Position numbers and translations under genes: made by a program. This document shows positions 22,117-25,100 of a stretch of DNA of 64,000 nt, piece by piece. The stretch's first letter is position 1; each line of letters opens with the position of its first letter. Where the stretch lies: the NCBI RefSeq assembly GCF_026151205.1, contig NC_087072.1, positions 13,740,169-13,804,168 on the forward strand. The letters are read 5' to 3'. The notes beneath the pieces were generated by a model. That model worked only from the letters and a program-made list of their open reading frames with translations, did not search any database and was not told where the DNA came from. The stretch comes from Bolinopsis microptera. Taxonomy: Eukaryota > Ctenophora > Tentaculata > Lobata > Bolinopsidae.

Positions 22117-25100
22117 TCACTTACTTTTTGGGGCGGGTCTGTTAACTCTAGATTTGATAGCTGCGATAAGAGAGTTAGATTTGTTGCTGGATCCAGGCTT
22201 GTGCTGCAATATATTCATATCTAGGAGTTCCTGGACTAGCTGTACAGCAGTAGGGGTGGGAAGTGGTAGTGCTTTTACCTCTAAGAAGGTGGGGTATGTG
22301 TTCGTTATCATCTCTAGAGCCGGACCGTACTGAAGTGGGTAAAATATCATAGTTGTCGTGACTATTTTCCCCCATAATTACGTAATTTATAAATTTCAAC
22401 GTTTTTACGCTTGTTTCCTGACATCTTGGAAACGAATTTGTTTCAGAGAAAAAGTTTTGTAAACTTTGGAAAATGGAAATGCTGGCCGACTGGGTCTCCG
22501 ACCTCTCCGTTGCAATCAAATAATAAAGTGTACCATTAATTCCGAGTCGTAGCGTTAAATGGTAACGAACAAATATCCATCTTTTTGCTTTATTCGCAGT
22601 AATATAACCATATTTCGGGTTTATTTAATGGACTATTTTACTGGTTTAGGTTCAGGCTCCTGAATTACCAGAGCCTTAATGGACTACTTGATTTGTCTGC
22701 AATTGTTTAAAAACGAATTTCTAGTTAGGGCAAGAATATAAATTTATGGGACCATCTGTGAATAAATTCATAACAAAGGTTTAGCTACAGAAATGCCGTG
22801 TCCATAGTCTGGACTACTACCAGGCACCACCAAAAAGTGATGAAAGTGATCTGAAAACCTCGTACGTTTGCCATAATGTGGCAATAGTTGTAATTTTCCA
22901 TCTCCTATTGAGACCTCACAGACCTTCCAAAACCGAGTTATTATTTTTAACGTGGGGGCCTGGAGAAACATTGCTCTAGAAAGTTTTCCCCATCAGTTTT
23001 AGTCTTACCACTTTTTTGGTGGTGCCTGGGACTATCATGGACAACACATTTCTGCAGAACAGGTCACCAGTGTTATTGTTATGAAGTAATTCGGCATTAA
23101 TCAATTGTTAGTTCTTGTCCTTTGTCGTATGCAATAGTATTTATCATTAGAGAGATAAGAATCATAACAATGAGGGCGTTGTATGCAGAAGTTTCAATAC
23201 TTTCAACACTACTATATTATAACAAATTACATATAACTTGAGGTAAATCTGTAGAAAGGGCAAGAGTTGGGCCAGTGATATTAATAAAGCTTACCTATAC
23301 TGTTTCTCAAGGAACATAACTACAGAATTATAAACTAGCCTCTTTACTATGTGTACACGTAAAATACATTTTTCTTCGCCGAATTTGAACTTTAATTCTT
23401 ATGGCTTTTAGTACATGCTACATTGCTACCCACAATGGCTAATAGAAACAGGCGGTATCAAAGTACGAACTTTATTTGAATGACAGGATTTGGAGATATA
23501 AATGATATCAGTTATTGTTAGCATATATTATTATAAAGTTATAAACTTAATTTCGAAGTTAAAAAGTTAATGAAATTAAGAGTTATATAAAGACTTACAT
23601 CGGAAGGATAATCGATTTCTTGAGGGTCGATCTCGTGAAAGAGTCTAGAATTAGAAGCGGAATGTTGCAAACTAACACAGTCCTCGTGAGCCAACAGTCT
23701 CGCAACGTAAGGTGTTATCATCCTGACTTTAGAGTGAGCGGTGACAGAGGGTGTCAGGTCGGTCACTCCCTCGTGACACTCTGATATTTGTCTAGCTGCT
23801 GAGGATTGTTCCTCACTTGAGGACGGCTGGCTGAGCACACTGAAACGGTTAATGTTGGGGGGTAGCGCGTCGTGGAGAAGCCGCGCAGCCAGCTCGTCAG
23901 CCGCGCTGTCGACAGGAGCGAACCTTACTAACTGTGCCATCAGCTTCTCTACCTGGAGAGGGTGTTAACTGTTAAAGTTTTTCGTAATTAGAACTTCGGG
24001 TAATAACAGGCTTGGTTATATGTATTAGATAACTCCAATTCGATAGTTGGAGAAAGGTGCAATGTGCCAATGTAGATTGTAAAATATCTTGAAATGAGGA
24101 AGAACAAAAAGAGCATAAATTAAACCTTGGTGAAGAAATTAGCACGAGCAGGGGAGTCTAAATCAGACTTGGAAACGCCAGTATAGTCCATATAATCTCT
24201 GGGTAGCCCCTCTCTGTACTCCACATCCTCCGCTCTAGCTAGAGTTAATGCTTTAGGGAGCAGTTTCTCTATCAGGTCTCCCCACGTGTTCGTCTGGTAT
24301 GTACTGTGGATATAGGGCTGGTATACCACAGTGTATATACTGTGGTATGTACTGTGGTATGTACTGCGGATAGGGCTATATATGTTTCTAACCGTCGTCT
24401 CGTTTTGATGGATTTTAGCACCGAATGGAGTTAAAATGTCTGATTTTCCAGATCTACGCCTCAAGTTATCTGGCAATATTGTAGGATTACCTGACAGTGA
24501 TGTGTAAGGAGTGGGTAGGATTACCTGACAGTGATGTGTAAGGAGTGGGTAGGATTACCTGACAGTGATGTGTAAGGAGTGGGTAGGATTACCTGACAGT
24601 GATGTGTAAGGAGTGGGTAGGATTACCTGACAGTGATGTGTAAGGAGTGGGTAGGATTACCTGACAGTGATGTGTAAGGAGTGGGTAGGATTACCTGACA
24701 GTGATGTGTAAGGAGTGGGTAGGATTACCTGACAGTGATGTGTAAGGAGTGGGTAGGATTACCTGACAGTGATGTGTAAGGAGTGGGTAGGATTACCTGA
24801 CAGTGATGTGTAAGGAGTGGGTAGGATTACCTGACAGTGATGTGTAAGGAGTGGGTAGGATTACCTGACAGTGATGTGTAAGGAGTGGGTGTCAGGAAGA
24901 CAGTTCCCTTGGTGAACAGTTCCTCTTGGGAAGTACAACATGTCCCCTGCTTCCAGCACTGTATCCAGTATCAGCTTACCCAACTCGTTCTGATTGAAGT
25001 TCTCAGAACTGTGTATCGGTAACGTTTCTTCGTCTGTTCTGCGAACATTTGTTTAGGGTAAGTCAGATATTCAATCATATCTGGTATCAGAATCCCGAAC

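What the first reader, a model, noticed from the sequence alone, without database searches (positions are those of the whole stretch)
24303..25038. RIOX1 intron 5 has both of its splice sites tandemly multiplied: 12 donors out of frame, three or four acceptors in frame
Seen: the exon 5/intron boundary (24 nt of exon plus GTAATCCTAC) is repeated 12 times exactly with a 34-bp period. Only the first donor is productive, because 34 is not a multiple of three and reading through gives TAA at once. At the other end of the same intron CAG/TACATACCA is repeated at 12-nt steps in an open, in-frame context, which would add up to 20 residues between HITVS and TYQTNTWGD. Inference: the array could tune RIOX1 output through unproductive splicing, while acceptor choice could give isoforms. 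Copy number is likely polymorphic.
Basis: partly seen in the sequence, partly recalled or inferred. Interest (0 to 1): 0.72.

Follow-up and report, generated by a model that had tools for sequence, protein, structure and literature searches.

The report
Tandemly repeated splice sites in RIOX1
The short stretch of DNA that marks where exon 5 of the animal gene RIOX1 ends and its intron begins is present twelve times in a row, a kind of splice-site repeat ("mirage") already described in lancelets, and it is most likely a length-variable, mostly harmless repeat rather than a control switch.

Summary
On the minus strand, 24 nt of RIOX1 exon 5 plus GTAATCCTAC is repeated 12 times exactly with a 34-nt period (24888-24481). 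Only the first donor keeps the frame; the other 11 read TAA at once. Exon 6 has four related in-frame acceptors (24363, 24351, 24339, 24303), from an older duplication. The product joining 24865 to 24303 aligns to human NO66/RIOX1 without a gap at the junction. Human IFI6 is a related precedent. Tuning by unproductive splicing has no support here; length polymorphism is likely by analogy but untested. New point: each unit is also a plausible acceptor joined directly to a donor (pyrimidine-rich CAG|GTAAT, branch-point-like CTTAC), so splicing between copies would restore the normal exon end and could explain why such arrays are tolerated. Caveats: species unknown, no RNA data, and RIOX1 exon 3 and TOP3A each carry a one-nucleotide frame change as assembled, so indel errors are likely.

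The parts
24481..24890 (-). 34-nt minisatellite, 12 exact copies of 24 nt of exon 5 end plus 10 nt of intron 5 start
24865..25038 (-). RIOX1 exon 5 (174 nt), ends at donor 1 (CAG|GTAATC), the only productive donor
24490..24830 (-). donors 2-12, first intron bases 24830, 24796 ... 24490 every 34 nt; each gives an immediate stop if used
   Evidence: stop about 564-904 nt before the exon 7/8 junction if acceptor 24303 is used
24304..24864 (-). RIOX1 intron 5, 561 nt, most of it the array
24290..24377 (-). duplicated intron 5/exon 6 boundary: acceptors 24363, 24351, 24339 (variant) and 24303
24323..24348 (-). predicted RNA hairpin, 10-bp stem, -13.8 kcal/mol for 24352-24318, containing acceptor 24339 (not tested against shuffles)
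24126..24303 (-). RIOX1 exon 6 (178 nt)
23599..23952 (-). RIOX1 exon 7 (354 nt)
22117..22329 (-). RIOX1 exon 8, coding part (acceptor inferred; reading frame ends at 22117)
25350..25478 (-). RIOX1 exon 4 (129 nt)
25675..25875 (-). RIOX1 exon 3 (201 nt), with a one-nucleotide frame change at about 25759-25746 as assembled; stop then at 25719
27363..27462 (-). RIOX1 exon 2 (100 nt)
28523..29313 (-). RIOX1 exon 1 (start codon uncertain; 29313 is the first ATG of the reading frame's stretch)

Best explanation
This is a minisatellite of the 'mirage' kind: repeated tandem duplication of a 34-bp piece that straddles the exon 5/intron 5 boundary of RIOX1, beside an older, decayed duplication of the boundary at the other end of the same intron. 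Shown: the copies, their frames, and that donor 1 joined to acceptor 24303 gives the conserved protein sequence. Inferred: donor 1 is favoured because it defines the short 174-nt exon and is transcribed first; use of donors 2-12 is minor and gives transcripts with an early stop that nonsense-mediated decay should remove; the array changes length between individuals; it has no selected regulatory role.
For: Anatomy. Conserved product of 24865/24303. Published mirages have the same definition, involve 5' and 3' boundaries, have units of 10-160 bp of which many hold AG/GT, and are reported not to interfere with regular splicing (passages of PMC3087553, and of PMC3902484). In human IFI6 two downstream repeat units also act as donors, giving three mRNA species (passage of PMC4526556). 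Donor 1 is a usable site: its U1 duplex (-8.2 kcal/mol) is the strongest of the gene's 7 donors, though well short of the consensus (-12.3). The perfect identity of 12 copies fits recent expansion or homogenisation.
Against: All 12 donors are identical and 11 of 12 are equally accessible in the predicted fold (0.54-0.58 unpaired; 0.27 for the last), so nothing local singles out donor 1; models in which the intron-proximal site wins (recalled) would predict much unproductive splicing. The only yTnAy branch-point match in the intron tail has its A at 24431, 128 nt before 24303 and nearer to upstream AGs, so 24303 may not be the main acceptor. No RNA data, second haplotype or related animal gene was available.
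Confidence: 0.72

Rival explanations
1. Splicing between copies (recursive splicing) heals the array: each unit ends in a pyrimidine-rich stretch and CAG directly followed by GTAAT, so a later copy can serve as acceptor for an earlier donor and regenerate exactly the normal exon end plus donor; the array is then collapsed at the RNA level whatever its length. (Compatible with the best explanation.)
For: The unit as acceptor has 72% pyrimidine at -3 to -20, equal to the highest of the gene's true acceptors (0.56-0.72), and a branch-point-like CTTAC whose A lies 14 nt before the G of AG. Each AG|GT has another donor 34 nt downstream, as fly recursive exons have (abstract and passages of PMC8605326). 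New introns made of tandem repeat units are reported in fission yeast (passages of PMC3629103; introduction of PMC4974935). It would explain why mirages with AG/GT do not spoil mRNAs.
Against: Needs skipping of at least two units (68 nt) to make an intron of usual size; the branch point is close to the AG; intron 5 is only 561 nt, whereas ratchet points lie mostly in long introns; in one of the two fission yeast genes the spliced EST disagreed with the annotated intron; no intermediates could be looked for.
Confidence: 0.15
2. The array tunes RIOX1 output: a share of transcripts uses donors 2-12, meets TAA and is degraded, and longer alleles give less protein.
For: Eleven of 12 donors give an immediate stop, about 564-904 nt before the last junction; the donors are identical in sequence.
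Against: Adh and troponin C mirages are reported not to generate aberrant mRNAs; conservation of the array could not be tested and no regulator was seen.
Confidence: 0.08
3. The copy number, or part of the array, is an assembly artefact.
For: Two neighbouring conserved genes carry one-nucleotide frame changes as assembled (RIOX1 exon 3; TOP3A at about 39655-39645). Copy numbers differed between two versions of lancelet PGBD5 (2 vs 7 and 3 vs 6), and one globin mirage was judged aberrantly assembled in the draft.
Against: Six single-exon reading frames, 6597 nt in all, run uninterrupted; the array lies between ordinary RIOX1 exon and intron sequence; base errors do not create tandem units.
Confidence: 0.1
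4. Alternative acceptors make real RIOX1 isoforms with 12-20 extra residues. (Compatible with the best explanation of the donor array.)
For: Four related in-frame acceptors; the 58-codon intron tail is open in the exon 6 frame, as in only 2.8% of 5000 mononucleotide shuffles; the branch-point match favours upstream AGs; 24363 and 24351 are not masked in the predicted fold (0.43 and 0.77 unpaired).
Against: The insert would split the [14 protein letters not shown] stretch that human NO66 has uninterrupted; 24339 is buried in a predicted hairpin (0.05 unpaired).
Confidence: 0.2

Closest known systems
Lancelet 'mirage' minisatellites (Adh3, troponin C, globins BflGb6/BflGb9, PGBD5)
   Same: Tandem repeats that span exon-intron boundaries, at donor and acceptor ends, with AG/GT kept in many units (passages of PMC3087553; of PMC3902484).
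   Different: Here both ends of one intron are affected and 12 copies are perfectly identical; the species is not known to be a lancelet.
Human IFI6 (6-16/G1P3) minisatellite with multiple splice donors
   Same: Repeat units at an exon end act as splice donors (passage of PMC4526556; Turri 1995 seen only as a reference title).
   Different: The IFI6 transcripts encode protein isoforms; here donors 2-12 give an immediate stop. The genes are different.
Intron gain by tandem duplication of AG-GT segments (ATP2A1; fission yeast SPOG_01682, SOCG_00815; potato RdRp)
   Same: Tandem units that carry splice-site motifs (abstract and introduction of PMC4974935; passages of PMC3629103, which gives the motif as AGGC).
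   Different: Here the units derive from an existing intron boundary; no new intron is shown.
Recursive splicing ratchet points
   Same: Juxtaposed acceptor and donor with a further donor downstream (abstract and passages of PMC8605326).
   Different: Short intron, tandem copies, no intermediates tested.
Human internal tandem repeats at exon-intron boundaries in segmental duplications
   Same: Minisatellites of about 30-bp units at boundaries that can alter splicing (passages of PMC2812944).
   Different: Those lie in recent primate paralogs.

Membership tests
Mirage minisatellite | tandem repeat unit spans an exon-intron boundary | tested here: met
   24 nt of exon 5 plus 10 nt of intron 5
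Mirage minisatellite | both 5' and 3' intron boundaries can be duplicated | tested here: met
   exon 5 donor 24/24 and exon 6 acceptor 19/24; the other 12 of 14 RIOX1 junctions are not
Mirage minisatellite | unit length in the reported 10-160 bp range | tested here: met
   34 nt at the donor, 12 and 60 nt at the acceptor; range
Mirage minisatellite | AG/GT retained in many units | tested here: met
   12 of 12 donor units
Mirage minisatellite | length variation between haplotypes or in the soma | not testable with these tools
   no second haplotype; no own genome held
Mirage minisatellite | regular splicing not disturbed | not testable with these tools
   no RNA data
Mirage minisatellite | host is a cephalochordate (where mirages have been reported) | not testable with these tools
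   no own genome held; no collection of animal genomes on hand
IFI6-type multiple-donor minisatellite | downstream repeat donors give coding isoforms | tested here: not met
   11 of 12 donors give an immediate stop
Recursive splice site | pyrimidine tract, AG juxtaposed to GT, downstream donor | tested here: met
   by simple counts and array geometry
Recursive splice site | lies in a long intron (usual, not absolute) | tested here: not met
   intron 5 is 561 nt
Recursive splice site | splicing intermediates observed | not testable with these tools
   no RNA data
Intron gain by tandem duplication | duplication created a new intron absent in relatives | not testable with these tools
   no related animal gene structure available
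RIOX1/NO66 | best match among solved structures is NO66 rather than its relative MINA | tested here: met
   E 5.6e-53 to NO66 (4e4h), E 2.5e-16 to MINA (2xdv), exons 5-7 only

The most novel reading that the evidence does not exclude
Exon-boundary minisatellites are tolerated because each unit carries both an acceptor and a donor, so the spliceosome can remove whole numbers of units and always restore the same exon end: an RNA-level buffer against repeat-length mutation, seen here with 12 identical units.
Probability: 0.15. Interest if true: 0.6.

Novelty: new member of a known kind. Interest (0 to 1): 0.36.

Why it matters
It is a very clean natural series of 12 identical competing donors, useful for asking how the spliceosome picks one of many equal sites and why splice-site minisatellites are tolerated. 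If the species is not a lancelet, it would show that mirages are not a cephalochordate peculiarity.

Tried and rejected
A shared habit in the window was looked for by eye: ten of the arrays behind the 41 TRF rows were printed with flanks and frames. The 33204 (30 bp), 32623 (21 bp) and 35725 arrays lie in open reading frames of the TOP3A region; the 37773 array is intronic and, although its units hold GAG|GTA, does not copy its exon end. Exon boundaries outside RIOX1 were placed only in part, so other boundary arrays are not excluded; among those examined, the 34-nt array is the only clear one. A resemblance between the 34-mer and the TOP3A 30-mer is weak (22 of 2000 shuffles score as high). 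RNA folding as the reason that donor 1 wins was rejected: 11 of 12 donors are equally open. Splicing as the reason for the frame change in RIOX1 exon 3 was rejected: no GT lies in that stretch. An Rfam search at gathering thresholds and ARAGORN found nothing in the window. A paper on stwintrons was opened in outline only and not used. The species could not be identified. Collection scans of viral, prokaryote and metagenome contigs were not run because an animal gene was sought; no structure was predicted.

Full report
What is there. The gene on the minus strand is RIOX1/NO66: the joined exons 5-7 match human NO66 with E 5.6e-53 and the relative MINA with E 2.5e-16. I placed eight exons by conserved frames and GT-AG ends; exon 5 is 25038-24865, exon 6 is 24303-24126, and intron 5 is 561 nt. 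The protein joined at 24865/24303 aligns to human NO66 without a gap at that junction.

The donor array. Twelve exact copies of 24 nt of exon plus 10 nt of intron follow each other with a 34-nt period, 24888-24481, with exact periodicity over 410 nt. The exon part occurs nowhere else in the window at up to three mismatches. Donor 1 keeps the frame through exon 6; the other 11 of 12 read HITVR-stop, about 564-904 nt upstream of the exon 7/8 junction if acceptor 24303 is used, which by the usual rule (recalled) makes such transcripts targets of nonsense-mediated decay. The donor has the strongest computed pairing with the U1 5' end among the gene's seven donors (-8.2 kcal/mol; the other six -4.1 to -7.5; consensus -12.3).

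The acceptor side. CAG|TACATACCA occurs at 24363, 24351 and 24303 and a variant at 24339; all are in frame. A self-match with one mismatch and a two-base gap links the region of 24363 to that of 24303, 60 nt apart (score 34; 500 shuffles reach at most 26), so I read it as an older, decayed duplication of the intron/exon boundary with an inner 12-nt repeat. Acceptor 24339 is inside a predicted 10-bp hairpin (24348-24323; its last six intron bases are 0.05 unpaired), while 24363, 24351 and 24303 are more open (0.43, 0.77, 0.61). Against the simple reading, the only yTnAy match in the intron tail has its A at 24431, 128 nt before 24303, so an upstream acceptor could be used; only RNA can tell.

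Is it more than chance? The repeat is not a chance match. That an array should sit on a boundary is less remarkable: a 34-mer placed at random in this gene covers one of its 14 junctions, with at least 5 nt on each side, about 5% of the time. Of the 14 junctions only these two have a close nearby copy. Both lie on the same intron, which is the unusual part.

What it is. Ebner and colleagues (PMC3087553; [quoted passage not shown] their data and those for Adh3 suggest no interference with regular splicing. The PGBD5 paper (PMC3902484; passages) adds troponin C and PGBD5, says that the Adh and troponin C mirages do not generate aberrant mRNAs, and notes different copy numbers in different versions of the genome. 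The original Adh paper (Canestro 2002) is not held; I know it only through these. Human IFI6 is a second precedent: downstream repeat units act as donors to give three mRNAs (PMC4526556 passage; the original, Turri 1995, is not held). The feature meets the four sequence-testable parts of the mirage description that I tested; host group, length variation and undisturbed splicing could not be tested.

How it most likely works. I think that donor 1 and one main acceptor make the normal mRNA, that the other donors are minor and unproductive, and that the array is a neutral or mildly costly, recently expanded or homogenised repeat. Predicted RNA folding does not single out donor 1; exon definition and order of transcription are inferred reasons for its use. 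A more interesting rival, compatible with this, is that splicing between copies heals the array. Each unit has an acceptor-like end (72% pyrimidine; branch-point-like CTTAC 14 nt before the G of AG) directly joined to a donor, with another donor 34 nt on, which is the layout of recursive splice sites (PMC8605326 abstract and passages). Any splice from one unit's donor to a later unit's AG restores the same exon end. New introns made of tandem repeat units are reported in two fission yeast genes, with EST support that was clean for one and discordant for the other (PMC3629103; PMC4974935). The short intron and the close branch point speak against it; no test was possible.

Caveats. RIOX1 exon 3 changes frame by one nucleotide at about 25759-25746, giving a stop at 25719 as assembled. 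TOP3A, a neighbouring conserved gene, has a similar one-nucleotide frame change at about 39655-39645. Six single-exon reading frames (6597 nt) run uninterrupted, which shows no stop but was not checked base by base against relatives. I read the two changes as occasional assembly indels rather than two broken genes, but copy number and sequence of the array need read-level confirmation. If the exon 3 change were real, this allele would make no full-length RIOX1 and the array's effect would be moot.

Verdict. Observation confirmed; regulatory interpretation unsupported; new member of a known kind. The literature statement rests on 10 answered searches of an open-licence library, several with capped lists; none was aimed at RIOX1 by name, and none of the listed titles and abstract starts concerns RIOX1, so I make no claim that this locus is unreported.

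Noticed in passing
25759-25746 (minus): One-nucleotide frame change in RIOX1 exon 3 within conserved coding sequence; stop at 25719 as assembled.
   Followed up: partly
39655-39645 (minus): One-nucleotide frame change in the TOP3A coding sequence, between two adjoining stretches that match human TOP3A in different frames.
   Followed up: partly
33204-33328: 30-bp repeat, 4.2 copies, in an open frame of the TOP3A region ([10 protein letters not shown] on the minus strand); faint resemblance to the RIOX1 34-mer (22 of 2000 shuffles score as high).
   Followed up: partly
37773-37897: 20-bp intronic minisatellite of TOP3A about 27 nt upstream of an inferred acceptor; its units contain GAG|GTA donor-like motifs but do not copy the exon end.
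   Followed up: partly
16752-16979: 21-bp repeat, 10.9 nearly identical copies, with three of six frames open through it.
   Followed up: no
24323-24348 (minus): Perfect 10-bp stem predicted in the pre-mRNA that buries alternative acceptor 24339; the other acceptors are not hidden by it.
   Followed up: partly
42824-47915: Three tandem receptor-like genes with uninterrupted frames; the two that were scanned match 7tm_1, the third was not scanned.
   Followed up: no
14959-15408: Exon of a cofactor-independent phosphoglycerate mutase (iPGM_N), an enzyme type patchily distributed in animals (recalled).
   Followed up: no
61992-63074: Uninterrupted DDE_Tnp_4 transposase frame (Harbinger-like is a recalled name).
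   Followed up: no
432-1105: 301-bp tandem repeat, 2.2 copies, 93% matches.
   Followed up: no
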